Positions 3,101-54,764 of a stretch of 64,000 nucleotides of DNA are shown one piece after another. Under the pieces are notes generated by a model that saw nothing but the letters and a program-made list of their open reading frames with translations, searched no databases and was not told where the DNA came from. A program made the translations under genes and the position numbers. This stretch comes from Thermoproteota archaeon. GTDB taxonomy: Archaea > Thermoproteota > Korarchaeia > Korarchaeales > Korarchaeaceae. The stretch covers positions 34,919 to 98,918 of the forward strand of contig JAOZGN010000006.1 in NCBI GenBank assembly GCA_027491555.1, given 5' to 3'. Within the stretch, counting starts at the first letter, position 1, and each line of letters starts with the position of its first letter.

Positions 3101-3113
3101 GCTCCTCCCCGAG

Positions 3114-27515: not shown

Positions 27516-29377
27516 CCCCCCTCTAGGTTCTTGGAAGTCCACTGCCGGAGGTAGTGAGGCAGGTCTTCGTGGTACACGACCGTGGCCGTCTCCCTAACGA
27601 AGTCTGGGAGGAGGGAGAAGTAGGCTGGCCTGGCGTACCGACTGTCCCCGAGCACGAACACGCCTGGCTCGTCGTGAGACCTTATGACCCTGCCCAGAGC
27701 CTGGGAGGCCCTTCGGAGAGCGGGAACCACGTAGGCAAGGTACCTTCCCCTCTCCCTTCCGTGCTCCTTCTCTCTGAACTCGAGCAGGAGCCTGGTCCTG
27801 GTGTTCATTCGATCGAAGGGTATCCCAACCAAGTAGACTCCGACCAGCTCCCTACCCGGGAAGTCAGCACCCTCGCTGAACCTCCCGCCCATTGGGGCGA
27901 CCAGGACCGCGGGGCTCTCGGTCTCGGCGGCGCCCTTGAACTCCTCAAGCACCCTCCGGGCCTCGTCCCCGCTCATGTCCTCTCTCTCCACGAAGAGAGG
28001 TCTGCCGAGCCTCGCGCAGGCCTCCGAGACGCCGTCAATTATCTCGCCCTGAATCCTGTAGCTGGCGGTGAACACCGCGACGTTCCCCGGAACGTTCTCC
28101 AAGAAGTCTGAGATGGAATCCACGTAGGCTTCGGCCATGCCGGGCGGTAGCGACTCGCCCCTAGTGGTGAGGTCTCTGGTGATGAAGGACTCCACCCTCT
28201 CTGGATCTACCTCAGAGGGCACGTTGGCGGGGGCGCACGAGTCTAGGCCGACGGCCTCTGCGAAGGCGTCTACCGGGGCGAGGGTGCCGGACATGAATAT
28301 CCTGGCGTAGAACCTGGGCCAGATTTTGGAGAGAAACTCCCTGGCCCGCATGTCCCAGACCTCGAACTCCAGGCGATCCCGCGCCCTCGAGACTATGAAG
28401 GCCACCCCTTCCTCTCCCGCAAGCCTGAGGCACTTCTCGAGGAACTCTCCCAAGTGGTGCAGAGACGACCTGGGCGCCTTCCCTTCGGCGGCCCTCAACC
28501 TCTGGACCTGGTTACCAAGCTTGATGATGCTAGCGACGTCCTCCTCCTCGAGCCCGCCCGCCGCCAGGAGGTCTAGGGGGTAGAAGACCCCGTCCTCATC
28601 TATTTTCTGGCCCACTCTCCTCATCTCGAGCAGGATCGATCCGAGACTCTCGAGCAGGCCCTCCTCCTCGGGGAAGTACTCTCTAACCTCGTCGATCGCC
28701 CTCTCCACCGTGGTGGTAGTCACTTTCTCCGAGTTTATCGACATGGCGGCTCCCTCGATGTTGTGGGCCTCGTCCACCACGAGGATAGACTTGCTGAAGG
28801 GTATGATCCTCCTTATTGCCCAGCCAGCCGGTCCCAAGATGTAGTTGTAGCTTAAGGCCACCAGCGTGGCATCTCTCAGGGCCAAGAACTGCAGGTAGTA
28901 TGGGCACATCCTCCTCTCCGCCGACACCCTCATCAGCTCCGAGAACGTCAGCGGCCTGTCGGTCAGGCCCTCCAGTGGGCGAACCCTCCTGTAGTACACG
29001 CACGTCTCCTTCTTCAGGCGACAGAGGTTTTCGACGGCCCTGTAGTCCCTGACCCCCCTCTCCCTCGCAAGCAGGCACATGTCCCTCTTGCCCCGGAGCG
29101 AGAGTCCGAAGGGCCCCTTACCCCAGCTCTTCCACACGGCCGTCAGCTCCTCTATTGGCCTGTCCGTCTCGTTTCCCGTCCTGACCGCCCAGATGATCCT
29201 CAGGTCGGAGCCCTCCACCTGGTCGAGAAGGGCCGCAAGGACCACCGGGGTCTTGCCGAACCCCGTCGGCGCCTGGATGCATATGTTGGCCCCCCTCCTC
29301 AGGTTGGCCGCTATGAACTCGATCAGTTCGACTTGGCGCTTTCTCGGCCTGTATGGAAAGTATTTGAAGCGGCTCAT
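27512..29377 (-). CDS. XPD/Rad3-like iron-sulfur DNA helicase (superfamily 2)
   Basis: 621 aa. Walker A is APTGFGKT (K42), the DEAH box is VDEAHN, and helicase motif VI lies in RASQALGRVIRS. Four cysteines suited to a 4Fe-4S cluster are at about 101, 119, 126 and 158; the spacing between the second and third (6 residues) is wider than the CxxC of Sulfolobus XPD. The arch domain follows. XPD unwinds DNA 5'-3' in repair. The start overlaps the stop of the upstream 411-aa regulator gene by 4 bp. Confidence 0.92.
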   Translation of the reverse strand: MSRFKYFPYRPRKRQVELIEFIAANLRRGANICIQAPTGFGKTPVVLAALLDQVEGSDLRIIWAVRTGNETDRPIEELTAVWKSWGKGPFGLSLRGKRDMCLLARERGVRDYRAVENLCRLKKETCVYYRRVRPLEGLTDRPLTFSELMRVSAERRMCPYYLQFLALRDATLVALSYNYILGPAGWAIRRIIPFSKSILVVDEAHNIEGAAMSINSEKVTTTTVERAIDEVREYFPEEEGLLESLGSILLEMRRVGQKIDEDGVFYPLDLLAAGGLEEEDVASIIKLGNQVQRLRAAEGKAPRSSLHHLGEFLEKCLRLAGEEGVAFIVSRARDRLEFEVWDMRAREFLSKIWPRFYARIFMSGTLAPVDAFAEAVGLDSCAPANVPSEVDPERVESFITRDLTTRGESLPPGMAEAYVDSISDFLENVPGNVAVFTASYRIQGEIIDGVSEACARLGRPLFVEREDMSGDEARRVLEEFKGAAETESPAVLVAPMGGRFSEGADFPGRELVGVYLVGIPFDRMNTRTRLLLEFREKEHGRERGRYLAYVVPALRRASQALGRVIRSHDEPGVFVLGDSRYARPAYFSLLPDFVRETATVVYHEDLPHYLRQWTSKNLEGG

Positions 29378-30609
29378 TGACCTCTGCGTTCTCCCACGTG
29401 GGTTACGTGATAAATGGTGGGCGACCCAGAAAGGGAGACCAACCTTTTTCCCATAACTCTCCGGGTCTCAACCAGCCCAAGCTCCTCTAATATGTCGACG
29501 TTCCTCTTGACGGTCTCGGTCGAGACGCCAAGCCTGTCCGCTAAGAGCCTTATGGGTTGGGGGCCCTCCCTCTCAAGGAGAACTAAGATGTTCCTCCGAG
29601 TTGAATTGCGCAAGGCCACGCGCACCGCGGCGTCCCTCCTCCTGCCCGGCAGAAAGTAGATCCGCTCCCCCAAGATCTCTTCCGACGTGATCAAACCGGC
29701 CCTTTCCATTACCCCCAAGTGATGCTTGAGCGTGCTGCGTGGGATCTGAAGCTGATCGCTGAGCTCGGACACGCTGGCGGCCCCCACATCGTCCAGGAGG
29801 GAGAGGAGTACTGCCCTGATGGGGTGGGATAAAACACCGGATTTGGGAACCCTCTTGACTCTCTGCGGCTGGTGAACCTGCCTCCGCCTGCTGAACGTTG
29901 CTCTCAGGGAGCCCAAGACTACAAGCCCAGCCAGCGAGACCGCGATGAATTCAGGTGGGATTGCGGCGCCTGGAGAAAGATGGTCGGTCAGGACCGCGAT
30001 CAACGTCAAGAGAGTGCCGGGCTCTTCTAGAGCCCACTCACTGAGGTTAGCCGACACCAGTACGATCGGTGGCTCTTTCTCGATCAGCATGACCGCGGGA
30101 ACTCCATCGTCATATGTGTACACTACCTCCACGCCTGCGGCAGAAACCATCCCCCTCTCAACACCAGGGGGAATTGTCAGCGTCGGAAGTCCCTCGTCTT
30201 GCCTAAATGGTATGAGTTTCGCGCCCCCGTTGGAATCGTAGGTGCCCCTCAGCTGGGCAGGGAGATTTGGAATCTCACCCATCATTTCGATGCCAACGAA
30301 TATTGGGCAGTTTAGGGAGGAAGGAGGGGTCCCGCCGACCAAAATCAGCGCGGCGTCTTGCCTCCCATGTAGAGGAGACCCGGCGTCCAAGACCACTACT
30401 CCAGAAGTCCCGTTTGCAGAGGCGAGACTCTCCAGTACCTCGTCAGCCGCATATACCCAGACGAGCAATTTGCCCTCAGCGCCGGACGAGGCGGCGGTTT
30501 CTGGGATATACGCCAACAGGAAGAGAGTGAGGCTTGTTAGTACAAGCAGCTGGACCCTCCATCGCTGAATTCTGGGAGGAGGCTTCATTCGCTTTTCAGA
30601 TTTGCCCAT
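29374..30609 (-). CDS. Membrane-bound regulator: extracytoplasmic domain, two membrane segments, tandem winged helices
   Basis: 411 aa. Membrane segment 1 spans about residues 20-38 (LLVLTSLTLFLLAYI), followed by an outside domain of about 185 residues with alternating beta strands and helices (LLVWVYAADEVLESLA, VLVSANLSEWAL). Segment 2 is about 225-243 (FIAVSLAGLVVLGSL). Inside are two ArsR-like winged helices: about 262-325 (SVSELSDQLQIPRSTLKHHLGVMERAGLI) and about 333-395 (RLLADRLGVSTETVKRNVDILEELGLV). It looks like a one-component receptor that binds DNA directly. It has a 90-bp leader with a possible promoter of its own and overlaps the XPD gene. Confidence 0.82.
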   Translation of the reverse strand: MGKSEKRMKPPPRIQRWRVQLLVLTSLTLFLLAYIPETAASSGAEGKLLVWVYAADEVLESLASANGTSGVVVLDAGSPLHGRQDAALILVGGTPPSSLNCPIFVGIEMMGEIPNLPAQLRGTYDSNGGAKLIPFRQDEGLPTLTIPPGVERGMVSAAGVEVVYTYDDGVPAVMLIEKEPPIVLVSANLSEWALEEPGTLLTLIAVLTDHLSPGAAIPPEFIAVSLAGLVVLGSLRATFSRRRQVHQPQRVKRVPKSGVLSHPIRAVLLSLLDDVGAASVSELSDQLQIPRSTLKHHLGVMERAGLITSEEILGERIYFLPGRRRDAAVRVALRNSTRRNILVLLEREGPQPIRLLADRLGVSTETVKRNVDILEELGLVETRRVMGKRLVSLSGSPTIYHVTHVGERRGQ

Positions 30610-30699
30610 GGAGGATCTTTGTTATACCTTTTTTGGTGCCGCAGGCCGCTAGGATTGCGCTGAGGAGATCTGGTTCTATGCAAAAGGTTAGCCCTCCGA

Positions 30700-31152
30700 T
30701 TATTCCCAAGTCAGCCCCCGGATTCTCACGTATCCCGACCTCTCCAGCCTCAGCAAAGCTGAGGTTATAGCAAAGGGAGTAACCCCCCACTCCTCCGCCA
30801 GTTCAGCTGGTCTGAGGGCTCCTCGTTCGGCCAAGTAGGCGAGGAGCCTTTTTTCTAGATCTGACAAGCCAGCGGAGTCGACTGCCTCCGGCAGAACCTC
30901 GGCCATGAGGCGGTATCTCGACGGCATGGGGGGGAGTACCTCCGAGTGGTAGTACGAGAGAGAGGTGAGCACACCGGCCAGCACGGCCAAAGAAGCCGCC
31001 AGCGCTTCCTGCTTGGGAGTTAGAATGGGAGACAGGACCGTTATTACGAGGAGCGACACTACCGTTATTGCCAGACCGAGCTCGACGGCGGCCATCGTCC
31101 TCCTTCTCCTTCTCCTATCCAGGGCCTCTTCTAGCCCGATAACGGCGCTCAC
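30700..31152 (-). CDS. Membrane-tethered winged-helix protein
   Basis: 150 aa. A basic N-terminus (RRRRRR) precedes two membrane segments (about 23-43 and 48-66), then a linker and a C-terminal winged helix (about 95-150: LSDLEKRLLAYLAERGALRPAELAEEWGVTPFA is its first half). The start is GTG 31152, overlapping the stop of the giant surface-protein gene (GTGA), so its translation is coupled to that protein. Both termini face the cytoplasm by the positive-inside rule, which places the DNA-binding domain inside. It is probably a partner or regulator of the operon. Confidence 0.78.
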   Translation of the reverse strand: MSAVIGLEEALDRRRRRRTMAAVELGLAITVVSLLVITVLSPILTPKQEALAASLAVLAGVLTSLSYYHSEVLPPMPSRYRLMAEVLPEAVDSAGLSDLEKRLLAYLAERGALRPAELAEEWGVTPFAITSALLRLERSGYVRIRGLTWE

Positions 31153-34100
31153 TTCAGCTCACCCTCCCCTTCGAAGATCGTGGGCGAGAGCAGCAGAACC
31201 TCCAGCCCGAGTTCGCGGGCCACGGAGGCTGCCAGCAAATCAGAGAGGACCACGGCCGTCGCCCCTCGGGTGACCGCCGCTATCAGGTTTGTGGCAGACT
31301 CTAGGCTCATTCCCGTGGTCCTCGCGAGCATGAGGGCCTGAACGAGGGCACCCTCCTCCAAATCGTGCACTTCTACCGTGCCCCTTCTTATGAGGTCGGC
31401 CAGCGTCGGGCCGACCGTTGAGTCGGCCAATAGGTCGTTGGCGGCTGGGCTAGTCACGAGAGCCAGTTCTCTCACGCCTGAGAGGCTCCCGGGGCCCCCC
31501 GTAAGTATCGCAAAGCGAATGGAACGCGAGTCGTAGAGCACGAGCCTCCGCCTCCTAAGTCCCAAAGATATCAAAAGAAAAGCCAGCATGGGGAGGGCGG
31601 AGGCGCCTCCCACGGCGGCCGTGAGGAAGGTGGGAGGCACCCTCACCACGCTTGAGGCCATCAATCCGAACTCTGGTAGCTCTGCCACGTTGATAACGTC
31701 CCCAGCCAAGCCCGGTGGGAGCTTGACCAAGTAGGTGACGGTTGCCGGCGTGCCTGCCCGCGCAGGCCTCAGGGCGATCTTCAGGACATTCTTAGCTGGC
31801 TCCCTCGACGCGTACTCCACCCCGTGTGTTGAGACGCTCTCAGGCAGGAGCGACGCGGCCTCGGGGAGTCTATCGACAACCACGACATCCACCGGCCCAC
31901 CGCGCACGTAGACCGAGACCGTGTACCTGATCGTCTGGTTTCCAAGGTACGTGCCCACCTTGCTGATCACGGGGCCCAGCGTCGGCGGGGGTCGCACGCC
32001 TATCCTGTACGTCGCCGTATAGTTCTGGGTGTACGCCACGTTAATGAGGGACCCTCCCGCCCCCGCCGTCACCACCGCGTGGAAGACCGCGGCGAAAGCC
32101 CTTCCAGGTGGAAGTTCGGACACCTTCCAGACAAGTCGGCCCGGCGCGGTTTGGTGGGGGGGTGGACTGGCCGAACCCTCGACGAAGGTCAGCCCCGCCG
32201 GGAGGACATCTACCAGGGTAAGGTTGGCGGCAGAGCCGTTGCCCACATTTGTCAATACGATCCTGCAGCTGACAACATCTCCTATCGTCACCTCTGCCGG
32301 CGAGCACTCCTTGGATATCGAGAGCCTGGCCAATTCAAGCGGCCTCGCAGGAGACGCCGCGGGCGCCGGTCCCGGAGGCCTGACGATGACTACCGGAGCC
32401 CTGGCAACCACCTCTCCGCCGTAGAGAACGACGTTGTACACGGTGGCGGATCCGACCGGGAGGGAGGAGACTGTTGCGCTGAAAGACAGGGTCCACTCGC
32501 CTCCCGGGGGGAGGGGGGGGAGGGTCCACCTGAGGATCGAACCTAAGATCTCTGGCTCAACGGAGACTCCGCTCACGCTTGAGGAGCCGGGCACATATGT
32601 CAGCTCCTCCGGAAGCTCGTCCTCTAGGATTATGATCCCGCTCTCAGACCCTCCAACGTTCCTCACGGTGATCGTGAAGGTCACCGCGTCTCCCATGGAC
32701 GCGACGCCCGGTTCAGCATACTTGGAGAACGTCAGTTCGGGCGGGGAGGGAGGTCTCGCTCCCTCGCACGAGAGGTTGGGCTCCAGCAGCGTGGCCTTGA
32801 CGAGGTACGTCCCATTCACGGCCTCGATCAGGGGAACCTGGACTCCACCCACCACAGGCACGACTGTGAAGTTAGCCGTGGCGTAGTACTCCGGTACCCC
32901 TTTGGCGAGCGCATCTGGCCTCCATGGGCCGACCCAGATCTCACCGGGTGAGATCGCCTCGCCGGGTGTGTAGCAGAAGACCGGCTCGCCAGCGGGCGGG
33001 GGGGACCCCCTCCACACGCACACCTCCGTCAGGTTGTAGACGAGATCCCTAGCTAGGTTCGTGAAGCTGGCCCTCACAGAGTAGCCCTCCTCGGACAGGT
33101 TTTTCTCCACATTCAGCGCCGCCGCCCCAACGGCGTGGACGCCCCTTATCCGATGGAGAAGCATCGCATCATCTCTCCTGAAGGTGAGGGACCCCTGTGG
33201 AAACTGCTCGGCACCGGTCAGCCTAGCTGATCCGGTTATGACGAGTTCTAGGGTCTCTCCTGAGTTGACATCCCCTATGTCCCACTCGATCGAGTCTGCT
33301 GAGAGGCTCACCGATCCTCCGGTCGAGGTGACCGATCCGGGGGTGAACCAGGCCGGGATAGGCTTCAGCAGGCTCACGTTTCTGAGCCGGTCGGTGAACC
33401 GGAGGGTTATCCGGAGCGTGAGGTTCGTTGACTCGCCGCAGGCTGGGGTGGAGGGCGTGACCGCCTCGAGCGCCGACACCGGCGGAGTTAGAAGACCCGG
33501 ATCCACCTCGTACCTCCATCTCCGATAGTCTCCCGGCCTGAGTTCCGGTACGTGGAGGGGCGGGGAGACTGGCGAGTCGCTTGGGGTAGGGTAGTCGGGG
33601 TAGAACTCCATCCCGACAGAGTCCAGTCGAATCCATATGTCTGAGACGACGTCGCCGGTCGGATTGGAGACCGTCAGAAATCCCCAGACCCTCCTGACCT
33701 CGTAGGTCGAGTCCGGGTAGAGCACGACGTCGACGAACTCAGAGGCCGATATGTTCAGGTAGCTCTCCGTCGGGTCAACTCCCAGGGTAAAGGCCTCGGA
33801 CAGGTTGTAGTCCACCAACCCACAGGCAGACGACCTGAGGGTGTAGGTGATGAGCTGGCTGGAGTCGGGGGACCCAGACGGGCCGAGGTCGACCGACCAC
33901 CAGTACACGCCGCCGGAATTTCCCTGGTATGGGGGCGTGGGAGACTCGATCAGCATGTTCGCCGGAACGACGTCGTACACCCTCACCCCAGGCGCAGGCG
34001 TCGGATTCCGGTTGGTGACGTTCAGCGTGACCTCGTAGTAGCAGGGGGCCGTCGGGGTGAGGGACTTCCTAACGGAGACATTCAGCCTCACCCCTCCTAT

Positions 34101-37100
34101 CCTTGCGCTCGGGCCGAACTCCGAGGTTCCGGCGGCCGAGAGGGTGGTGGTGCCAGTTAGCAGGCTGCCGGCCTCGGGTCTCAGCCTTGCGGGGAGTGAA
34201 GACACAGGGATCCAGCCTGAGAACTCCCCGTTGGCGTCGGTGCTGAGGCTCCCGAGGTAGGCGAACCCCTCCCCGTAGTATCTGGAACCATAGAGGTTGC
34301 CGTCGAAGTTGTCTCCCGCCTGAGAGTTGTTGACCATAAAGATCTCCACGGTCGCGCCGGCGAACTCCGGAGACCCAGACCCGGCCGACTCGGAGTTCAC
34401 GAACCCCTCCACGTACACATGGGTTCCGTTGTAGGCCGCGAAGGTGATCACCGGGTAGTCCACCTTCAGGTTCGGGGCCCCGGGGTTGAGTGCCCCGTCG
34501 TTGACGGTCACATGATCCCCGTTCGGGTTCCCCGCGCCCGCAAGGGTGGTGTTATCGATGTCCACACCCAGCCCGGTGTTGTTGAACATCGAGTTCTGGG
34601 TCAGGTCGTTGTCTAGGGCGTTGCCCGGCGACCCCCAACTGGGTGGAGGTACGGTCCTCGCTACGACGACCCCGCCCCCGTAGTTGGAGTAGATCACGTT
34701 GCGGCTGACTACACTGTGGTTTCCAAACAGCCTCACCCCGCCAGCCTCGCCCTGGTAAGGCTCCCAGCCGTTGAGCGTGATGTTGTTTTCTTCTATTCTC
34801 ATGCCGCCAAGCGCGAACCAGCTGTCAATTCCGTAGCACGTGTTGTTGGCTATGAGGTTTACCCTCACTTCGACCCCGCTGGCCGCGGCCTCCATCGACA
34901 TTCCATCGGGACCTCCCGACGAGGCCGGGTCGAACACCTGCTTCAAGCCGTTGGAGGTTATCAGGCATCCTTGAACCAAGCCGGAGGACACCGTCGATCC
35001 CGTGAAGTGGATTCCGGTTCCCCAGTTGTAGGAGACGACGGAGTAGAGGACCTGGGACGAGTCGCCCTCTACTAAGATCCCCATTCTGGAGTTTCTCCAC
35101 TCTCCCTCCGATCCGGGATCGCGTCCGTCCGGCCTCGCGCCAACGAAGCACCCGTAGATCACCGTCCCCGTCGCCGAAGACTTCACCCTCACGGCTCCGC
35201 CCGATCCATAGCTCGAATAGAATCCGTAGATTGACAGGTTTGCTATCTTCACCGAGCTTGCTCCTTCTACCACCAGTCCCTCGAGGTTCATGCCTTTGCC
35301 GTAGATGGCGACCTCGGGCAGGCTGTAGCGTGGGAGCGAAGGTTCATCCCCGGTCCCCGGAACTCCGTCGGGACCGGTTCCTACCGCACCTGCGGGTCCG
35401 AGCGCCCCCGGGTTGGCGTCGTTGATCGAGAGGGAGGGGGTGAATACGGTTCCGTTAACCTCGGTGCCGCCGTCGGTGATTGTGGGGAGCTGGCCGAGCG
35501 AGGAGTTGACGTCAATCCTCCACCAAGAGTGCGATGGATCGGGCTGGACGTTCGGAGGGGTCATGAACACAAACCAGCTCCTATCACCTCCGGAGATCGC
35601 GTTTGCATTCTGGAGAAACTGTCTCAGGGTTCCCTGCGCCACCCTGGGGTTCAGGGGGTCGTGATCGGCGTCCAACGTGTTGACGATTACGTCGAAGCTG
35701 AAGCCAAAGTCGAGGCTCTCCCCTATGTAGTCGCCAGCGGAGACCAGTGAGACATGCTCACACCTTGTTCCAGGCCTCCAAAGCGTCAGCTCGTCGACGT
35801 AGTACTCATATCCGCCGTGAATGACTATTCTGTCGAAGGATGTGTATGTTGTATCGGTAGCCCTCACTTGCGCCAGAAGGTCGCCGCTCAGATCGTACAC
35901 TTGGAATGCGATTGTACCGTTAGCGAAGAAGATCATCTTCCAAAAGTACCACTCGTCCTCGGGCGGATCCCAAGAGACGCGGGGGGATATCCTGGTCGGC
36001 GCCCCCCCGTCCCTCCTGTCTATCCAGATCCTTCCTCTGCGGTGATCCACCGTGAACGTGTAGCCGTTGAACGAGGAGTCCTCCAGACCAATCCTGTCCC
36101 TGCTCCCCCCAGCCCAGAGGCTCGGCCTGTAGGCGTAGCCTTGGAGGATCACCCCGCGGCCGACAGTTCCGCCGAGGAGCTTGTACCCTCCGTTGGGGTC
36201 GTTCCTCAAGTCCTTCTTCAGGCTGAACGATCCCTCGTAAGCCTGCTCATCGGACTGGTAGACGGTCCCGGCACCGTAGTCCGACCAGCCGGCCCACGTC
36301 TCGAACCCGTCGGAAAAGATGACCTCCAGGCTGCAGGCGTCGCTAACCTCTGGAGCCCTCCCACCGAAGTCTGGGGAGCCAGTGTGGGCGGCGCCGTCCC
36401 AGCTAACGACGTACGTTCCCTCCGCCCAGGTCTCGGTCCAGTCTCTGCCAGCGTTGAGGCCCCTCGGCGAGGTGACGGTCCTGGAGTCGACGGCTATCCA
36501 GTAGGTGTCGTTTCTGGCTAGGAAGCTGTAGCCTCCAGCTGAGCTCGTCTCCGTCACTCGGACGAGTGAGTCGGTCAGGGGATCAAAGCTTCCGTCCCCG
36601 TTGTCCAAGAACAGCCCTAATCTGGCGCCAGAAACCGGTAGATCTACTCCCGGAGAGAACCCGCTGGCCAGAGGCCATTCATCTTCAAAGACTATTCCGG
36701 ACAGGTTCGCCCTGACCTCAAAGGTCAGCTCGTCCACGTTGAAGAAGTCGGTGTAGTTCACCTCGTCCGGCCTCCCGGGTATGTGAATCAGGCCGTCGTA
36801 CGAGGGGGAGAGGATCGACGCGGAGGAGTCGTTCGCGAGGACGACTATTCTCCAGTCTCCGAGGCGATCTCCGGGAGATATCGAATAGACGTTGTCGTTC
36901 GTAAAGATCCCGTCTCCAGCGACGGCGTCACCGTGAGTTCCGTCGTCGTACAGCGCCGCAGACGAGACGAGAGCGCCTGAAGGGTCATACACGCGCGCCA
37001 ATATGCCGCCGGTGGGCGCCGCGTCAACGCGTGCGACGACCTTGAGCGGCCCAAAAGTCTGCAGCTCCCGGGGCTCGGTCAGGTTGACCCCGAAGCCCTC

Positions 37101-40100
37101 CACCATGTCCGCCTGAACCGTCGCAGAGAGGTTGCACCAGATCAGGTTGTCGATGTAGGCCCAAGTCTTGTACCAGTCGTCCGAGTAGGTGTGCACGGTA
37201 AAGTTGACGCGGATCGTCTGCCCCGCGTAGGGCGTGAGATCGTAGTCCGTCGCTATCCACCAGCCAGAGTCTGCGAAGGTCCCGTAGGAATAACCCACAT
37301 TGGGGTTGTATACCAATATCGTGTCCAGCGTGTTACCGGCTAGGTCTCTGATAGTCACGACGAGGTAGTCGAAATACGACGAGTCCCAAGACTCAACCCT
37401 GAACCAGAAGGTAAGGTTTCCTCCCCCGCTCGGGACGGTTATCTCATATGCAGCCCACGTGTCCTCGCCGCTGGATGTGTAGTCCTCAGGCACGTCGACC
37501 CTGTACCCGAGGACAAGAGAGTAGTCCCCCACGGCGGGCAGGCCGTCGTCCACGATGAAGCGAGGGTTCGGAGGGGGGGATCCGAGGGTTCCGCCGTCGA
37601 TCGTGTAGGGTCCCCTGGGGCTAGCCTGTATGATCGACGAGATCCCGGCTGGGGATTGCCCGTAGAGCCAGTAAGACAGATCCCCTAGGTCCACCCCAGT
37701 GTTCAGCGTGTTGTAGACGGGCTTGGCGCCGTTCTCCAAGATGTCGAAGTAGACGTAGAAGGTCTCCTGCGCGGTCAGGTCGTTTGGGAGCAGGAACTTG
37801 ATTGTCCCGGTTCCCCGGCCGGTCGGGATGTACTCCTGCTTTGGAACCAGGCTCCCGCTCGGGTCGACCACCCTCACCGAGTTGTTGTCGAAGGTCCCCG
37901 AGACGTTAAGGTCGGTCAGGAGGTCCGTGAAGTTGACCTCCACGACGACCATCTGATACTGGTAGCCCGCGGGCACCGTGATGGGAACCCTGTAGTGCCA
38001 GTCGTCGCCGGAGTTGGGACCGTCGGGGTCCCACCACTCGGGGACGCCGTAGAGAACGTAGTAGTACCTGTTAGGGTCGTCGTAGAATACGAGAGTGGAG
38101 CCCCTCTGGTACCAGATCTCTACCTTGCGAGTCTCGTTTCCCAGGGCCAGAACCTCCTTCACTACAGCCCCAGGCGGCAGATCGACCGTGATCCGCCTCC
38201 ACTCTCCGTCACTCTTGTTGGCCAGCTCCACAAGGATCTTGCCCGGGGAGAGGAGGATCTGCCTGGAGGGCGGCGCGGCCGGGGCACCGTTCAGGAGGGC
38301 CTCCACTATCGCCATGCCCGCGGAGTCAAACCAGAACTCCCCGCCGGAGACCTCGAAGTCGGCGCCCCTCCAGTGAACCGTGACGTGCCTGGCCTTGAGG
38401 CCAATCCTATGAGACCCCGGCCGCCTAACCTCCAGCCAGCGGACCAGCCACGTGCCGTCCTCCCCCTTGGCCTCGAACTCGGACAGGACCCTCACCAGGG
38501 CAGGCTTCTTTGGCTGCTTAGGCGCCTTCTCGGGGGCGGGAATCCCGGAGACGCCAACGCCCCCCCTCCCGGGGGGACCGCGCTCCTGGGAGGGTGGAAG
38601 CTCCACAACGATGATCAGTGAGACCTTCCCGTCGCTCCGGCCGTCGGGGTCCCCTGGGCCTCCGTCGTTCAGGGAGATCGTCCTTCCCTCCACCCCGTAC
38701 CGCGCTCTGAGGGGCGCCCCGTTCGGCCCCACTACAACGAGGACCCCCTCCACGCCGGAAAGTCTGAGTTCGGCGGAGAAGCCGGGCTCTCCCTCGAGAT
38801 TGAGCAGCAGACCGACCACGTTGTCGCGCCCTCCCCAGAGACCCTCCGGCGGTTCGACGACCCGCGCGTCAGAGATGCAGGCTCCCTCAGCCGCCAGCGT
38901 GACCCCTCCAACCGACGCCACCGGCGCGCACGGCCCAGGCGGCTGCCTCACCGCGATGGCGCATGATTCGAAAGCGCGAAGGCCACCCAGGGTGGCGCTT
39001 ACCTCCAGCGTGTAGTTCCCGGGCTCCAGCGGGCCGAGGGATAGGGTGAAGTTGCCCGGCGCGGGCGCCGAGAGGGCCCCACGGAGAGCCTCCTCACCGC
39101 CACGACCGCTGAGCGCGTACTCAACAGACGCGTTGCCGGGCGGGGCGCCGGAAAGGAGCAGACCGACCTCGACCGAGACCTCCTCGCCGGATAGGAACTC
39201 GAGCACCTCAGGGAGTCGGATCTCGAGGGTGGCGTTCAGAGAGGGCGCGCCGGGCGGGAGGACTACGAACCCCTCGACTCTGGCCGAGAGGCCGCGCCAG
39301 GTGGCCAGCACCGAGAAGGAGTAGTTCCCGGGCGGGAGATCCGGCAGCGTCAGCGCGGCCAGCCCGTCCTCTGTCGTCCCTGAGGCGGAGAAGTTCGCGG
39401 GGCCCGTGAGGGTGAGATTCACGCCCGCTCCAGACAGAGGTCCAGCAGCGACGGCCTTGACGCTCACCACGGCCAGCCCGACCGACGCGTTCAACCCCAC
39501 GTTCAGAACGTCAACCCACAGCGGGACTTCCGCAATCCCGACGGACCCCGCCCTCCACCCACGGGCGAGGAGGTCGTACCTCCCGAGCTCGACGACGCTC
39601 GTCAGGGGGTACTCCGCCAGCCAGGTTGACTCGTTCACCTGGACTGGGTCCAGCCGGATGACCCTCCCTCCGGGCGTGACCAGGGACACGTTGACACCCT
39701 CGAGGGACATGTTCGCGGTTATCCAAGCTGAGATGGACTCACCGGGAGCGTATGCGTCCCTCTGGAGGTGTATCCTGAGCTCAACCTTGGGTGAGGGGAC
39801 CGTCGCCAGCAGCTCTGTGCTCCCGACTATGCCCCTGGAGTCGACGGCCCGAAGATCCAAGCTGTACGTCCCAGGCATCCAGGGCTCGAAGCTGACGTTG
39901 GCGGATCCAGAGACCGGAACATCCGTCAGCGCCATAGACGCGTTGTCTGGGCCGACGACGACGAGCGAAACGTTGGCCTCTACGGGCCTCCCGGTCCGGG
40001 CGCTCTCGACACTCACGGCGACCGTGCAGACGTCCCACCCGCACGACCAGTCCGCTGAGAGGAGGATCGAGTCGACCGTGAAGTTGGCGACGGCCTCCAG

Positions 40101-40475
40101 CTCTCCGACCTCGGCCCTCAGGTAGTAGACCCCAAGGGGGATTGGCGAGATCAGGGGGAGTGGAAAGCTGAGGGTCCAGGTCCCGTCTACCTCGCGCAGG
40201 TAGGCCGAGAGGTTGATCGTACGGTTGTCGGGTGTTATCAGCAGCACGGTGGGGCTGGGGGCCCCCTGGAGAGAGAGGTTGGCCGTCACGTTCTCCCAGG
40301 GGTTGAGGTAGTCCCTAGCCAGCACAATCGAGATGCCCCCGCCTCGGGCCGCGGTCGGGGTCGGAGGGCTGAACTCCTGGGCTCTCGCGGCCTCGGCCGA
40401 GCGCAGGCTCGGATGAGCCGCGGCTATTACGAGAGCCGCCAGCAGCAGACCTGCGAACTCGGCCGACGGCCTCAC
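31149..40475 (-). CDS. Giant modular surface protein with one C-terminal membrane segment and a cytoplasmic domain
   Basis: 3108 aa. By eye: signal peptide 1-33; repeated Ig-like domains to about 510; a Lys/Pro-rich linker near 670; DUF2341-like domain about 820-900; jelly-roll domain about 925-1115; an 'anchor X'-like module about 1140-1230 (DDGTHGDAVAGDGIF); SdrD/Cna-B-like domain about 1250-1375; second jelly roll about 1380-1570; right-handed beta helix about 1605-2000 after TLRQFLQNANAISGG; then DUF11 repeats about 2120-2950 (KYAEPGVASMGDAVTFTITV; ECSPAEVTIGDVVSCRIVL). A membrane segment (about 2949-2970) and an Arg cluster lead to a 130-residue inside domain that looks PIN-like. Paired cysteines and many sequons fit an extracellular stalk or adhesin. 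It is 14 bp behind the 271-aa gene. Confidence 0.85.
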   Translation of the reverse strand: MRPSAEFAGLLLAALVIAAAHPSLRSAEAARAQEFSPPTPTAARGGGISIVLARDYLNPWENVTANLSLQGAPSPTVLLITPDNRTINLSAYLREVDGTWTLSFPLPLISPIPLGVYYLRAEVGELEAVANFTVDSILLSADWSCGWDVCTVAVSVESARTGRPVEANVSLVVVGPDNASMALTDVPVSGSANVSFEPWMPGTYSLDLRAVDSRGIVGSTELLATVPSPKVELRIHLQRDAYAPGESISAWITANMSLEGVNVSLVTPGGRVIRLDPVQVNESTWLAEYPLTSVVELGRYDLLARGWRAGSVGIAEVPLWVDVLNVGLNASVGLAVVSVKAVAAGPLSGAGVNLTLTGPANFSASGTTEDGLAALTLPDLPPGNYSFSVLATWRGLSARVEGFVVLPPGAPSLNATLEIRLPEVLEFLSGEEVSVEVGLLLSGAPPGNASVEYALSGRGGEEALRGALSAPAPGNFTLSLGPLEPGNYTLEVSATLGGLRAFESCAIAVRQPPGPCAPVASVGGVTLAAEGACISDARVVEPPEGLWGGRDNVVGLLLNLEGEPGFSAELRLSGVEGVLVVVGPNGAPLRARYGVEGRTISLNDGGPGDPDGRSDGKVSLIIVVELPPSQERGPPGRGGVGVSGIPAPEKAPKQPKKPALVRVLSEFEAKGEDGTWLVRWLEVRRPGSHRIGLKARHVTVHWRGADFEVSGGEFWFDSAGMAIVEALLNGAPAAPPSRQILLSPGKILVELANKSDGEWRRITVDLPPGAVVKEVLALGNETRKVEIWYQRGSTLVFYDDPNRYYYVLYGVPEWWDPDGPNSGDDWHYRVPITVPAGYQYQMVVVEVNFTDLLTDLNVSGTFDNNSVRVVDPSGSLVPKQEYIPTGRGTGTIKFLLPNDLTAQETFYVYFDILENGAKPVYNTLNTGVDLGDLSYWLYGQSPAGISSIIQASPRGPYTIDGGTLGSPPPNPRFIVDDGLPAVGDYSLVLGYRVDVPEDYTSSGEDTWAAYEITVPSGGGNLTFWFRVESWDSSYFDYLVVTIRDLAGNTLDTILVYNPNVGYSYGTFADSGWWIATDYDLTPYAGQTIRVNFTVHTYSDDWYKTWAYIDNLIWCNLSATVQADMVEGFGVNLTEPRELQTFGPLKVVARVDAAPTGGILARVYDPSGALVSSAALYDDGTHGDAVAGDGIFTNDNVYSISPGDRLGDWRIVVLANDSSASILSPSYDGLIHIPGRPDEVNYTDFFNVDELTFEVRANLSGIVFEDEWPLASGFSPGVDLPVSGARLGLFLDNGDGSFDPLTDSLVRVTETSSAGGYSFLARNDTYWIAVDSRTVTSPRGLNAGRDWTETWAEGTYVVSWDGAAHTGSPDFGGRAPEVSDACSLEVIFSDGFETWAGWSDYGAGTVYQSDEQAYEGSFSLKKDLRNDPNGGYKLLGGTVGRGVILQGYAYRPSLWAGGSRDRIGLEDSSFNGYTFTVDHRRGRIWIDRRDGGAPTRISPRVSWDPPEDEWYFWKMIFFANGTIAFQVYDLSGDLLAQVRATDTTYTSFDRIVIHGGYEYYVDELTLWRPGTRCEHVSLVSAGDYIGESLDFGFSFDVIVNTLDADHDPLNPRVAQGTLRQFLQNANAISGGDRSWFVFMTPPNVQPDPSHSWWRIDVNSSLGQLPTITDGGTEVNGTVFTPSLSINDANPGALGPAGAVGTGPDGVPGTGDEPSLPRYSLPEVAIYGKGMNLEGLVVEGASSVKIANLSIYGFYSSYGSGGAVRVKSSATGTVIYGCFVGARPDGRDPGSEGEWRNSRMGILVEGDSSQVLYSVVSYNWGTGIHFTGSTVSSGLVQGCLITSNGLKQVFDPASSGGPDGMSMEAAASGVEVRVNLIANNTCYGIDSWFALGGMRIEENNITLNGWEPYQGEAGGVRLFGNHSVVSRNVIYSNYGGGVVVARTVPPPSWGSPGNALDNDLTQNSMFNNTGLGVDIDNTTLAGAGNPNGDHVTVNDGALNPGAPNLKVDYPVITFAAYNGTHVYVEGFVNSESAGSGSPEFAGATVEIFMVNNSQAGDNFDGNLYGSRYYGEGFAYLGSLSTDANGEFSGWIPVSSLPARLRPEAGSLLTGTTTLSAAGTSEFGPSARIGGVRLNVSVRKSLTPTAPCYYEVTLNVTNRNPTPAPGVRVYDVVPANMLIESPTPPYQGNSGGVYWWSVDLGPSGSPDSSQLITYTLRSSACGLVDYNLSEAFTLGVDPTESYLNISASEFVDVVLYPDSTYEVRRVWGFLTVSNPTGDVVSDIWIRLDSVGMEFYPDYPTPSDSPVSPPLHVPELRPGDYRRWRYEVDPGLLTPPVSALEAVTPSTPACGESTNLTLRITLRFTDRLRNVSLLKPIPAWFTPGSVTSTGGSVSLSADSIEWDIGDVNSGETLELVITGSARLTGAEQFPQGSLTFRRDDAMLLHRIRGVHAVGAAALNVEKNLSEEGYSVRASFTNLARDLVYNLTEVCVWRGSPPPAGEPVFCYTPGEAISPGEIWVGPWRPDALAKGVPEYYATANFTVVPVVGGVQVPLIEAVNGTYLVKATLLEPNLSCEGARPPSPPELTFSKYAEPGVASMGDAVTFTITVRNVGGSESGIIILEDELPEELTYVPGSSSVSGVSVEPEILGSILRWTLPPLPPGGEWTLSFSATVSSLPVGSATVYNVVLYGGEVVARAPVVIVRPPGPAPAASPARPLELARLSISKECSPAEVTIGDVVSCRIVLTNVGNGSAANLTLVDVLPAGLTFVEGSASPPPHQTAPGRLVWKVSELPPGRAFAAVFHAVVTAGAGGSLINVAYTQNYTATYRIGVRPPPTLGPVISKVGTYLGNQTIRYTVSVYVRGGPVDVVVVDRLPEAASLLPESVSTHGVEYASREPAKNVLKIALRPARAGTPATVTYLVKLPPGLAGDVINVAELPEFGLMASSVVRVPPTFLTAAVGGASALPMLAFLLISLGLRRRRLVLYDSRSIRFAILTGGPGSLSGVRELALVTSPAANDLLADSTVGPTLADLIRRGTVEVHDLEEGALVQALMLARTTGMSLESATNLIAAVTRGATAVVLSDLLAASVARELGLEVLLLSPTIFEGEGELK

Positions 40476-40489
40476 GGGCTCTTCCCCCC

Positions 40490-41305
40490 TCAGGGTGGCC
40501 TCTCCCTTGGGGCGAGACGAGGCCTTCTACCCTCGGACCTCCTGAGGGCCCGAGAGGCGATTAAGACGAGCATGACCACTATCAAGGCCCCCCAAAAGGC
40601 CAGGTATCCCTTGATGGGGAGCATGGGTAGTGGGAGGGGGCTGAACTCCACCCATACCCTCACCCTCCCGCCCTCGGGCAGCCCCGACAAGTCCCACTCC
40701 ACCGACTCGCCCCCGGACCTAGGGCCGGGTGAGGCGTAGGTCACCCTGGAACCGGACGGAGGGAAGATGACCACCCTCCCCCTCTCGACCCTGTTGGAGA
40801 TCGGCCCTATCCCAAAGGCGAACTCGTCAAACAGCACACCGCGCGCCACCCCGTTCTCTATCCTGAAGGAGAGCTCGAAGGACTCCCTCTGACCCGGTCT
40901 GAGGGGCTGCCACAGGGAGTAGCGGAGGACCAGGGAACCGTTCTCCCAGAGCGGAACGACCTCCATGTCAACGTTCCTGGTCAGGTCCCTCGCCGAGAGG
41001 ACGGTCACCGAGAGGTTGACCCTCCTCTGGCCGGGCAGCGGGAGGCCGCCAGCGCTCCTCTGCCTGATCCCCGAGACGGGCAGCTTCCCGTACCCGGGCA
41101 CCACCGGGACCCGGCCGTCGTTCCGCAGGGTGGCCCTCACCGTGACGGTCACCGTGCCGTCCTCCGAGACCCGCGCCGTCACCTCGAGCCTCTCGTACAC
41201 GAGCGGATTGTACTCCCCCTGCGCGGCGAGGGCGTGCAGGGTGGGGAGGCACAGGGCTATCACGAGCGCTGACGCGAAAAAAGCGTGGAGGGGACGGGAG
41301 GGCAT
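40490..41305 (-). CDS. Secreted membrane-anchored surface protein
   Basis: 271 aa. Signal peptide MPSRPLHAFFASALVIALCLPTLHALA (first residues shown across the h-region), an extracytoplasmic beta-sandwich region (LEVTARVSEDGTVTVTVRATLRNDG; LSFRIENGVARGVLFDEF), one membrane segment (about 235-255, LAFWGALIVVMLVLIAS) and a basic tail. The frame is open upstream to 41476, but those residues are a low-complexity antisense read of the neighbour, and ATG 41305 begins a proper signal peptide. It sits between the 721-aa and 3108-aa genes with gaps of 31 and 14 bp, so it is the small member of a surface-protein trio. No family recognised. Confidence 0.8.
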   Translation of the reverse strand: MPSRPLHAFFASALVIALCLPTLHALAAQGEYNPLVYERLEVTARVSEDGTVTVTVRATLRNDGRVPVVPGYGKLPVSGIRQRSAGGLPLPGQRRVNLSVTVLSARDLTRNVDMEVVPLWENGSLVLRYSLWQPLRPGQRESFELSFRIENGVARGVLFDEFAFGIGPISNRVERGRVVIFPPSGSRVTYASPGPRSGGESVEWDLSGLPEGGRVRVWVEFSPLPLPMLPIKGYLAFWGALIVVMLVLIASRALRRSEGRRPRLAPRERPP

Positions 41306-41336
41306 AGCCCGACGCCCCGCTAGTCGGGAAAAAAGT

Positions 41337-43502
41337 TCACTGGGAGGGGGACTTTCTCCTCCTCTCGAGGAGGACCCCCACGACCACCAGGACGGCGACG
41401 GCGATGACCAGCCACTGCTCGAAGGTGGCCGCGCCGAACTCGACGCCCGCCGAGGGCATGAACACGGCGGTGGCATCCAGCGTGTTCCTGGGATCGACGC
41501 CCACCACGAAGATGTCGGTGAGGTTGTAATCGCCCTTGCCGATCACGCAGTAGTGGACAACCACAGGATTGTACACATCCATGTTGAGGTTCTCATAGGT
41601 CCCCTTGGCGGACACGACCACCTTCCCGGCGCCGGTGTCGAGGGTGTTCTGCACCCACGAGACAAGGAAGTCGGTTCCGCCGGCGGCTATGGTGCTGCCC
41701 TCGGCGTAGTCGGTGCCGTTGACGTTAATCGTGCTGCCGTCGACCGGATAGACGGTCCACTGCCTAGTAGACCCGTCGGCCAGCGTGACCGTGACCGTCT
41801 TAACGTTGGCCGCCCCGGGCCCGTCGAACCACTCCGCGAAACCCATCTGCGGTGCCGGAAGCGGGTAGGTCTTCCACAGGTATCCCTTCTGGTAGCCAGT
41901 GAGGCCGGTCACCACTTGGCTGTAGTCCGGCGGAGAGTTCGAGTCGGCGTCTTGGGCCAGCATCTGGATCGGGAAGAACATCATGCTCTCGTTGCTCGCG
42001 TCACTCTCTTTGGCCATGAAGTTGAGTGGGATTAGGTCATAGAACTCGACGTAGGGCGTCATCCACTCCCCGGCGTTGTAGAGCTCGATCGTTATGCAGG
42101 TCATGTTGTTCACGGGCCCGGGCCTGACCTCCTTCTTCGCCTTGACCAAGTAGCCCCTGACCACCCAGATCATTTCCCTCACGATGAACTTGGACCTCCC
42201 GTCGGGCCCTACACCGACGGTCGTGTTGGTGTAGTTCATCCAGCCGTAGGTCTCGTCCCTCTCTATCCTGGCCTTGAACTCGGCCCAGACCTTCGGAACC
42301 GATCCGGAGGAGAAGCTGAACGGTCCGTACTGATAGGAGGTGCTGGCCTCTCCCGGGCCTATGACGGCTATCGGAGAGCCGACCTGCTCGTTCTCGGAGC
42401 CCGCTATTGGAGTGCCCTCGGGGTTCGCCGTGGTGGTGGCCCACAGCTTGGTGTAGACGATCTCGTAGTCGAAGGTCCCGCTCGTGTCGTACACCACCAA
42501 GGTCTCGTACCAGTTAGACGGGGTTGAGGTGTCCTGCTCCTTCTTAGCCTCGAAGTCGGCGTCACCCACCGCGTACAGATAGCCCACGCGGCTCCCGCTT
42601 ATCGCCCTCGCAAGCTTGAACCTGAGGTAGATCGTTCCCATGTGGACCTTCTGGGTGCTTCCACCGACCTCAGAGAGGTCGGGAGTTCCCCTAACGACGA
42701 CTCCCGTGAGGTTCTCGTTGGAGTTCGCCGCCACGGTGAACCAGCCGTCCGGCCAGCTGCCGTCGCCCGTCCAGTTGAGCTGCTTTCCGTCGGTGGAGAG
42801 TCCAGACCCACCACTCGTGGGAGTGCCCGCTGAGGTGAACACCGGGTTGCCGGCGGCATCCCGCCAGCCGTCACTCGGCCCGTTGTCCGGGGGCAGGATC
42901 TTCCGGAGCTTGACGCTGACGTCCCACGGGAGATCGTTCACTACGGTGATGTTGATCTCGATGTCCTGAGTCTGCCCGTCCACTATCTTCTCGGGGTCTA
43001 TCGTCTCACTCACCCTTATCGGGGGGCAGGTCGAGATGGACGCTCCGTCGATGGAGTATGTTAGAACAACCCTGTCACCCGGCTGAAGTTCGGTTATGTG
43101 GACCCAGTACATGCTGTTCGCATCGCCGAATCCGCTGGAGGGGTAGGAGTTAAGGACCCATGAGGGTATCGAAGCCCCCGGGGCCGACACCTCAACGTAG
43201 GCGTAGGACGGCTTCTCTGACACGGACAGGGGGGTGAGATAGGTCAGGGTCGTGTCGAGCCAGATGGGGAGCCACACGTCGAACACCCTCTCCGTCGCCC
43301 CGTTGTATATCGTGACGTTGCCCGTGACGTTCCACGCCCCGCAGTCGTAGAAGAGGCCGTCGGTCTCCAGGGTGGCGTTCACGATCTCAGTCAGGTACAC
43401 GCTCAGCGGCGCGTCGGGAGTCGCCTGCGAGACTTGAGAGGAGCCTGGGGCCACTAGGAGGGCAACCAAGAGGGCGACTCCGAGTACCCCTCTGCGATTC
43501 AT
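41337..43502 (-). CDS. S-layer-like surface protein, first gene of the giant-protein operon
   Basis: 721 aa. Signal peptide after ATG 43502 (MNRRGVLGVALLVALLVAPG), a long ectodomain rich in beta structure, Thr/Ser and N-x-S/T sites, and a C-terminal membrane anchor (WLVIAVAVLVVVGVLL, then RRRK). Near the end it has a DUF11-like domain plus the segment DYNLTDIFVVGVDPRNTLDA, which closely matches DYNLSEAFTLGVDPTESYLN in the giant protein, so the two share a module. AGGTGG precedes the ATG, and the open frame upstream crosses the palindromic promoter, so it is not coding. Confidence 0.85.
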   Translation of the reverse strand: MNRRGVLGVALLVALLVAPGSSQVSQATPDAPLSVYLTEIVNATLETDGLFYDCGAWNVTGNVTIYNGATERVFDVWLPIWLDTTLTYLTPLSVSEKPSYAYVEVSAPGASIPSWVLNSYPSSGFGDANSMYWVHITELQPGDRVVLTYSIDGASISTCPPIRVSETIDPEKIVDGQTQDIEINITVVNDLPWDVSVKLRKILPPDNGPSDGWRDAAGNPVFTSAGTPTSGGSGLSTDGKQLNWTGDGSWPDGWFTVAANSNENLTGVVVRGTPDLSEVGGSTQKVHMGTIYLRFKLARAISGSRVGYLYAVGDADFEAKKEQDTSTPSNWYETLVVYDTSGTFDYEIVYTKLWATTTANPEGTPIAGSENEQVGSPIAVIGPGEASTSYQYGPFSFSSGSVPKVWAEFKARIERDETYGWMNYTNTTVGVGPDGRSKFIVREMIWVVRGYLVKAKKEVRPGPVNNMTCITIELYNAGEWMTPYVEFYDLIPLNFMAKESDASNESMMFFPIQMLAQDADSNSPPDYSQVVTGLTGYQKGYLWKTYPLPAPQMGFAEWFDGPGAANVKTVTVTLADGSTRQWTVYPVDGSTINVNGTDYAEGSTIAAGGTDFLVSWVQNTLDTGAGKVVVSAKGTYENLNMDVYNPVVVHYCVIGKGDYNLTDIFVVGVDPRNTLDATAVFMPSAGVEFGAATFEQWLVIAVAVLVVVGVLLERRRKSPSQ

Positions 43503-43734
43503 GGTAACCACCTGACCACCACACAATATCAAGCTAAATGCTTGATATTGCACATCTTCCTTGTTATTTTCAGCGATCCGCCACATTAAAACGGTTGTAG
43601 CCGCCGCTCCAAACGACTCAACTAGGAAGCGATGAAACGTTTCCTCGAGGCCCACCTACCCCTCAGGTAAGCGCGTAGCTTAAGTGAAGCCGCCTAGTGA
43701 GTTTAAAAACCGTGGATGGGGGTGAGCGCCGCCC
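43503..43734. other. 232-bp regulatory gap upstream of the surface-protein operon
   Basis: No gene is seen. Besides the inverted repeat at 43524-43550 there is a TATA-like GAAAATAAC (minus, about 43562-43573) and a separate perfect 10-bp palindrome GAAACGTTTC at 43634-43643. Confidence 0.5.
43524..43550. promoter_or_regulatory. Perfect 11-bp inverted repeat, candidate operator of the surface-protein operon
   Basis: CAATATCAAGC (43524-43534) and GCTTGATATTG (43540-43550) are exact reverse complements around a 5-base spacer TAAAT. On the minus strand the centre reads GCATTTAGC, TATA-like, about 35 bp before ATG 43502. If the TATA box is instead the one at 43562-43573, the repeat covers the transcript start. 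In either case a bound dimer would block transcription. Confidence 0.7.

Positions 43735-53490: not shown

Positions 53491-54760
<1,270 letters not shown>

Positions 54761-54764
<4 letters not shown>

What the first reader, a model, noticed from the sequence alone, without database searches (positions are those of the whole stretch)
29374..43550. Giant surface-protein operon carrying its own membrane-bound transcription regulators
Seen: on one strand, a palindromic promoter, then secreted anchored proteins of 721, 271 and 3108 aa, then a 150-aa protein with two membrane segments and a winged helix (its GTG start overlaps the giant's stop), then after 90 bp a 411-aa protein with an outside domain, two membrane segments and two winged helices. 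Known: single-protein membrane-bound winged-helix regulators exist, but I know of no described unit joining them to a 3000-residue surface stalk. Inference: the surface proteins form a structure whose state is relayed through the membrane to DNA-bound regulators, perhaps acting on the operon's own promoter.
Basis: partly seen in the sequence, partly recalled or inferred. Interest (0 to 1): 0.88.

Follow-up and report, generated by a model that had tools for sequence, protein, structure and literature searches.

The report
Surface-protein operon with membrane-tethered gene regulator
In a heat-loving archaeon, giant cell-surface proteins are encoded together with membrane proteins carrying DNA-binding-type domains, and a similar gene set is kept in methane-making archaea, which hints that these cells read the state of their own surface and adjust its genes.

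Summary
The five genes are real, on one strand and tightly spaced. The order is no accident. In Korarchaeota the giant's end is followed by a small two-membrane-segment protein in 16 of 16 genomes where that junction could be read; a 411-type regulator comes next in 4 of the 15 where the following gene is visible, and in the window. In a Methanococcales-like order, 8 of 36 genomes have a long membrane double-winged-helix regulator, all 8 beside surface genes, and a promoter element nearly confined to those genes. Where the surface operon was lost (G001, G111) the regulator is decayed or truncated. Against the reading: the 150-aa protein's winged helix is neutral to acidic and lacks a full wing; its cytosolic part differs in other lineages; the palindrome is genus-only; three methanococcal genomes keep the operon without the regulator. 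Best view: a surface complex with a membrane-tethered regulator (411), the 150-aa protein being an adaptor. Sensing and DNA binding are inferred.

The parts
43524..43550 (.). Perfect palindrome CAATATCAAGC-ATTTA-GCTTGATATTG ending 21 nt before the 721-aa start codon; possible operator or RNA hairpin
   Evidence: also in G002 with the same arms and inverted loop, in none of the other 12 of 13 genomes searched
41337..43502 (-). 721-aa secreted protein with one C-terminal membrane segment; conserved surface subunit
40490..41305 (-). 271-aa secreted protein with one C-terminal membrane segment (start codon chosen; longest ORF to 41476)
   Evidence: no Pfam match
31149..40475 (-). 3108-aa giant surface protein: beta helix, DUF11 repeats, one membrane segment (about residues 2951-2969), cytosolic tail
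31170..31553 (-). PIN-fold cytosolic tail of the giant (residues about 2975-3102), probably non-catalytic
   Evidence: AlphaFold2; Foldseek; VIA-align; acidic residues
30700..31152 (-). 150-aa protein: two-segment membrane hairpin and a C-terminal neutral-to-acidic winged helix with truncated wing
29374..30609 (-). 411-aa membrane-tethered regulator: signal or membrane segment, outside domain, membrane segment near 214, two winged helices

Best explanation
The unit encodes one membrane-anchored surface complex (721 + 271 + giant) plus its coupling on the inner side. The giant passes through the membrane once and ends in a PIN-fold domain that has most likely lost nuclease activity and works as a docking module. 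The 150-aa protein, translated directly after it, is a membrane hairpin that pairs with the giant's membrane end and tail. The 411-aa protein is a one-component regulator: its outside domain reads the complex or a ligand, and its two cytosolic winged helices bind DNA, most likely at the operon's own promoter, so production follows the state of the surface. Shown: gene content, tight spacing, conserved order, PIN fold by prediction, regulator decay after operon loss, and a nearly operon-specific promoter element in the methanococcal relatives. Inferred: physical contacts, the signal, DNA binding, and which protein reads the promoter element.
For: Small protein directly after the giant's tail in 16 of 16 Korarchaeota genomes where the junction is on a contig, with a winged helix in 15 of 16 by family profile. 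The gap is -4 to +6 nt in 13 of 14 junctions measured, start codons chosen by me. 411-type gene next in the window and in G002, G005, G018 and G009. In the order of G071 (36 genomes) 8 have the long regulator (in G398 split in two ORFs), all 8 beside surface genes; an anchored protein with a PIN-like tail and a two-segment small protein lie directly before it in 7 of 8, and a giant directly before the anchor in 5 of 8. G001 lost about 30.75-43.70 kb of window sequence; its 411 remnant is 82% identical against 97 and 94% in the flanks, with stops. G111 shows no surface genes in the 16 kb viewed and keeps a 157-aa winged-helix piece. Promoter element: 13 exact sites in 9 of 20 genomes, reversed control 0 in all 20; 10 of 13 within about 220 nt upstream of a surface-operon gene, 1 about 0.5 kb upstream of a giant, 2 elsewhere.
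Against: 11 of 15 Korarchaeota with a visible next gene lack the 411 gene there. G201, G319 and G091 keep the operon without the regulator; G319 and G201 still have an element, damaged at the main promoter in G201, and G091 has none. So another protein may read it. Seven of the 13 sites were seen before the pattern was written; of the other six, 4 are at surface genes and 2 are not. The korarchaeal tail profile gave no hit (E up to 1) to the methanococcal anchors; the link is a moderate profile-profile match. A tree does not group korarchaeal and methanococcal regulators; holding them together is marginally rejected (p-AU 0.0375). A second korarchaeal surface family carries the same tail with no partner-gene hit in 7 of 7 neighbourhoods viewed. 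No DNA-binding or expression data.
Confidence: 0.5

Rival explanations
1. The cytosolic parts are adaptors for assembly, not transcription: the PIN-like tail and the small membrane protein anchor the surface complex to something inside the cell, and the 411 gene is a later, optional addition.
For: Small winged-helix core net charge -5 to +1 (0 in the window) with 0-6 residues after it, against mostly +1 to +8 for other archaeal winged helices in the same scan (a few are -3 to -1, and the first helix domain of 411 is itself -3). Pfam sees no winged helix in 5 of 6 other small orthologues scanned and a weak one in the sixth. The cytosolic part is missing in methanococcal partners, not winged in G007 and PIN-like by eye in G293 and G078. 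The tail occurs without a partner in another family.
Against: Full-length double-winged-helix regulators recur beside the operon in two lineages, and a promoter element nearly specific to the operon exists.
Confidence: 0.3
2. The PIN tail is an active RNase, so the giant is a surface receptor that triggers RNA cleavage inside the cell, for example as defence or as control of its own long messenger.
For: Fold matches VapC toxins and Nob1; the window tail keeps a first-strand Asp and a Leu-Ser-Asp at the last strand.
Against: Apart from the first Asp the acidic positions vary among 14 tails, and several orthologues lack the last strand; 3 of 7 methanococcal tails lose even the first Asp. No Pfam PIN match above cut-off.
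Confidence: 0.07
3. Ordinary surface-layer or adhesin operon with bystander regulators that hitch-hike in a conserved gene string.
For: The surface genes exist without regulators in several other lineages (L098-L101; f6 genomes and G236).
Against: Decay or truncation of the regulator after operon loss in two lineages, and recurrence of the same type of neighbour.
Confidence: 0.13

Closest known systems
ArnR/ArnR1 of Sulfolobus acidocaldarius (PMC6396743: start of abstract and passages seen)
   Same: Membrane-bound archaeal one-component regulators that act on promoters of surface-appendage genes
   Different: ArnR has an N-terminal HTH, a putative HAMP and sensing domain and two C-terminal membrane segments; 411 has an outside domain first and two C-terminal winged helices. 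The passages seen mention no giant surface protein, PIN tail or hairpin partner
Membrane one-component regulators such as ToxR or CadC, and FecR-type cell-surface signalling (recalled; of PMC9249621 only the search listing was seen)
   Same: Outside state relayed through the membrane to gene expression
   Different: Bacterial, other domains and topology; homology not tested
PIN-domain proteins (VapC toxins, Nob1)
   Same: Fold of the giant's tail
   Different: Attached to a 3000-residue surface protein; acidic residues not conserved; no antitoxin of a known kind among the profile matches listed
TbsP of Haloferax (Pfam TbsP_N PF19138; its paper only as cited in passages of PMC13286277)
   Same: Weak profile match to 3 of 14 tails, best E 0.00099; TbsP also joins this domain to a winged helix (recalled)
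   Different: No match over the cut-off in 29 or in 394 genomes; similar weak hits in four unrelated genomes
Archaeal DUF11 / B_ant_repeat surface proteins
   Same: Giant's stalk repeats
   Different: Cytosolic PIN-fold tail and regulator genes in the same unit

Membership tests
Membrane-bound one-component winged-helix regulator (411-aa protein) | Winged-helix DNA-binding domain(s) | tested here: met
   Pfam HTH_20 2.7e-19, HTH_24 4.6e-14, two stretches each
Membrane-bound one-component winged-helix regulator (411-aa protein) | Membrane anchoring with an outside domain | tested here: met
   Hydropathy segments near 19-21 and 214; layout shared by aligned orthologues; hydropathy only
Membrane-bound one-component winged-helix regulator (411-aa protein) | Binds DNA and changes transcription | not testable with these tools
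   No binding or expression data
Membrane-bound one-component winged-helix regulator (150-aa protein) | Winged helix with a complete wing | tested here: not met
   The protein ends 0-6 residues after the core in all orthologues scanned; the core is neutral to acidic. The helix-turn-helix itself is clear by profile
ArnR | N-terminal HTH, HAMP-like and sensing domain, two C-terminal membrane segments | tested here: not met
   Winged helices are C-terminal in both proteins against the layout given in PMC6396743
PIN-domain superfamily (giant's tail) | PIN fold | tested here: met
PIN-domain superfamily (giant's tail) | Conserved catalytic acidic residues | tested here: not met
   Of the acidic positions only the first Asp is invariant among 14 tails
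PIN-domain superfamily (giant's tail) | Match to the curated PIN profile | tested here: not met
   PF01850 in 1 of 14 tails, E 0.18
VapBC toxin-antitoxin | Small antitoxin with AbrB or RHH-type DNA-binding domain paired with the PIN protein | tested here: inconclusive
   Partner is a membrane hairpin with a winged helix; no antitoxin profile among the matches listed (the list in 73 is capped)
TbsP_N | Match over the Pfam cut-off | tested here: inconclusive
   Sub-threshold matches only

The most novel reading that the evidence does not exclude
An archaeal surface-to-gene signalling system that recurs in two lineages: a giant surface protein (or a split giant plus anchor) acts as receptor, its cytosolic pseudo-PIN tail and a membrane hairpin partner form the relay, and a co-encoded membrane-tethered double-winged-helix factor controls the operon through a nearly dedicated promoter element.
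Probability: 0.38. Interest if true: 0.86.

Novelty: new variant of a known kind. Interest (0 to 1): 0.74.

Why it matters
How archaea sense and adjust their outer surface is little known (my judgement). This unit gives a testable case in which surface proteins, a membrane partner and a gene regulator are inherited together. Because a related order recurs in methanococci, some of which are grown in the laboratory (recalled), the idea can be tested there rather than in uncultured Korarchaeota. On print: a five-term search with PIN domain, cell surface protein and S-layer returned 0 papers, one on membrane-bound winged-helix regulators with surface proteins 0, and nothing on this operon was seen in the listings. 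The library holds open-licence papers only.

Tried and rejected
Palindrome as a conserved operator: not supported beyond the genus. It occurs in G002 alone among the 13 genomes searched at up to 3 mismatches, and in the 9 other upstream regions printed only inverted repeats with arms of 6-8 nt, or none, are seen. In the three methanococcal upstream regions scanned, arms reach 8 nt at most.

TbsP_N as the tail's family: dropped, as matches are below cut-off and similar weak hits occur in unrelated genomes. Outside domain of the 411-aa protein: no fold found; a second structure job failed and the tool was then off. 721-aa family: no solved relative at E up to 1, no Pfam match. VIA-align's list is a second look at Foldseek's matches; families absent from it are not excluded.

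One shared origin of korarchaeal and methanococcal regulators: the tree separates them, weakly. Four rows (three second winged-helix proteins of the glycosyltransferase cluster, and oth_G253) were removed before the test. hhalign links the tails (probability 66) and the small proteins (probability 60) only moderately. A 111-aa regulator-like match in G395 was not viewed.

Papers: searches. Searches returned 0 papers; the list was of unrelated papers. The gene names searched are recalled. PMC5898192 describes another predicted surface and secretion complex in the passages seen. The passage seen in PMC4460559 did not concern this operon.
Full report
What is there. The minus strand carries five close genes: 721 aa (43502-41337), 271 aa (41305-40490), 3108 aa (40475-31149), 150 aa (31152-30700) and 411 aa (30609-29374). 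Gaps are 31, 14, -4 and 90 nt, and the 411 gene overlaps the next ORF (an XPD-like helicase by my reading) by 4 nt. The surface proteins have a C-terminal membrane segment and, by reading, an N-terminal signal. The giant has a right-handed beta helix and DUF11 repeats. The 150-aa protein is a membrane hairpin with one winged helix; the 411-aa protein has an outside domain, a membrane segment near 214 and two winged helices. The organism belongs to the Korarchaeota by inference: a 411 relative carries that name, and named relatives of the operon include Candidatus Methanodesulfokora washburnensis.

Conservation in Korarchaeota. The 721-aa protein is found in 13 of 29 genomes of the phylum held. 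The giant's end with its tail and the next gene were on one contig in 16 genomes (G002, G004, G005, G007, G008, G009, G010, G012, G013, G014, G016, G017, G018, G020, G023, G027). In all 16 a protein with two membrane segments follows on the same strand. In 15 it ends in a winged helix by the family profile, in G007 it does not; most of these rows built that profile, and Pfam alone sees no winged helix in 5 of 6 small orthologues scanned and a weak one in the sixth. In 13 of the 14 junctions measured, window included, the gap is -4 to +6 nt with start codons chosen by me; in G027 it is 276 nt. The 411-type gene follows in the window and in 4 of the 15 genomes where the next gene is visible (G002, G005, G018, G009; in G023 the contig ends). 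G002 has a second giant with a similar tail and no such partner.

Two different winged-helix proteins. In the small protein the winged-helix core has a net charge of -5 to +1 (0 in the window) and the protein stops 0-6 residues later, so the wing is incomplete. Other archaeal winged helices in the same scan are mostly +1 to +8 with more sequence after the core, though a few are -3 to -1. The first helix domain of 411 is itself -3, its second +4. I expect the small protein to be an adaptor and the 411 protein to be the DNA binder; charge alone does not prove it. Between the window and G002 the five genes are under purifying selection (dN/dS 0.08-0.34).

A natural experiment. G001, a near relative, lacks window sequence from about 30.75 to 43.70 kb, that is the promoter to most of the 150 gene. 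Its 411 remnant is 82% identical over the part facing the deletion against 97 and 94% in the flanks, and has stops.

The same kind of unit elsewhere. Scanning for the regulator led to G071, where a giant homologue, an anchored 512-aa protein with a PIN-like tail, a small two-segment protein and a 385-aa membrane double-winged-helix protein lie in a row. In the order of G071 (36 genomes) 8 genomes have the long regulator (G071, G235, G218, G252, G303, G384, G406, and G398 where it is split in two ORFs), and all 8 have it beside 721-like and 271-like genes (in G235 the 271-like gene reads as two ORFs). In 7 of 8 the anchor and small protein lie directly before it (not G384); in 5 of 8 the giant directly precedes the anchor. 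G111 shows no surface genes in the 16 kb viewed, is not listed for the 721 profile, and keeps only a 157-aa winged-helix ORF. The korarchaeal tail profile gave no hit to the methanococcal anchors; profile-profile comparison supports kinship of tails (E 5.5e-5, probability 66) and of small proteins (E 8.7e-5, probability 60) only moderately. In these genomes the small protein has no winged helix. In G293 and G078 its cytosolic part looks PIN-like to me (no profile match). The surface genes alone are found more widely (721 profile in 30 of 391 genomes at E up to 1e-10; neighbourhoods).

A promoter element. Upstream of the methanococcal surface units I saw TGTCYAAAAA(A)TGTYCNATAA next to a TATA-like stretch in six genomes, in G303 before both of its separate units. 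An exact scan of 20 genomes found 13 sites in 9 genomes, none for the reversed pattern. Ten lie within about 220 nt upstream of a surface-operon gene, one (G406) about 0.5 kb upstream of a giant with a small ORF between, two (both G303) at other genes. Seven of the 13 were seen before the pattern was written; of the six others four are at surface genes. Of the 11 genomes with sites none, G398 (operon cut by the contig end) and G091 have surface genes; of the other 9 only G111 was viewed. G201, G319 and G091 have the operon without the regulator gene; the main promoter copy has 2 mismatches in G319 and is damaged in G201. The window has no such element (best 9 mismatches in its upstream region). 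Its own candidate is the palindrome, which is unique in G002 and, with loop inverted, keeps both arms.

A wider regulator family. Proteins like 411 also occur in another cluster with a second membrane winged-helix protein and a gene that is a family 2 glycosyltransferase by Pfam in G001 and similar in place and length in G154, G341, G291, G257 and G134 (in G341 it reads as two ORFs). A tree does not place the korarchaeal and methanococcal operon regulators in one clade; holding them together is marginally rejected (p-AU 0.0375). So the pairing with the surface operon may have arisen twice, or the tree may suffer from long branches.

Judgement. That surface state is relayed to the regulator, and that it acts on the operon's own promoter, is the best-supported reading but rests on inference. 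The closest described case in the papers seen is ArnR, a membrane-bound archaeal regulator of surface appendages with a different layout (PMC6396743, passages).

Noticed in passing
window 43535-43539: The 5-nt loop of the palindrome is inverted in G002 (ATTTA against TAAAT) while both 11-nt arms are identical, as if the centre had flipped.
   Followed up: partly
window 34501-36500: The giant is a mosaic against G002: identity falls to 0.71 at 35001-35500 (beta-helix part; synonymous divergence about 0.55 over residues 1700-2100), while the genes on either side are about 0.97-0.99, suggesting recombination or diversifying pressure.
   Followed up: partly
L120-L125, L132: Second korarchaeal surface family of about 1260-1320 aa, mostly beside a topoisomerase-like gene by my reading, with the same PIN-like cytosolic tail but no winged-helix partner hit.
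   Followed up: partly
L062 7867-16461: A second giant of 2864 aa in G002 with a similar tail, without the other operon genes.
   Followed up: no
L201-L205, L061: Cluster of two membrane winged-helix proteins around a glycosyltransferase or similar-sized gene in several archaea.
   Followed up: partly
L207 6989-8991, L208 7120-11772, L209 5946-8951: Further 411-like membrane winged-helix proteins of 416-808 aa lie next to single anchored secreted proteins.
   Followed up: no
L251 6431-6973, L255 3085-3618: Small membrane-hairpin partners whose cytosolic part looks PIN-like instead of winged-helix.
   Followed up: partly
L163 12757-13230: In G111 no surface genes are seen and the regulator is reduced to a 157-aa winged-helix ORF.
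   Followed up: partly
window 53568-56314: A MacB/FtsX-type permease gene next to a CARDB-containing anchored surface protein.
   Followed up: no
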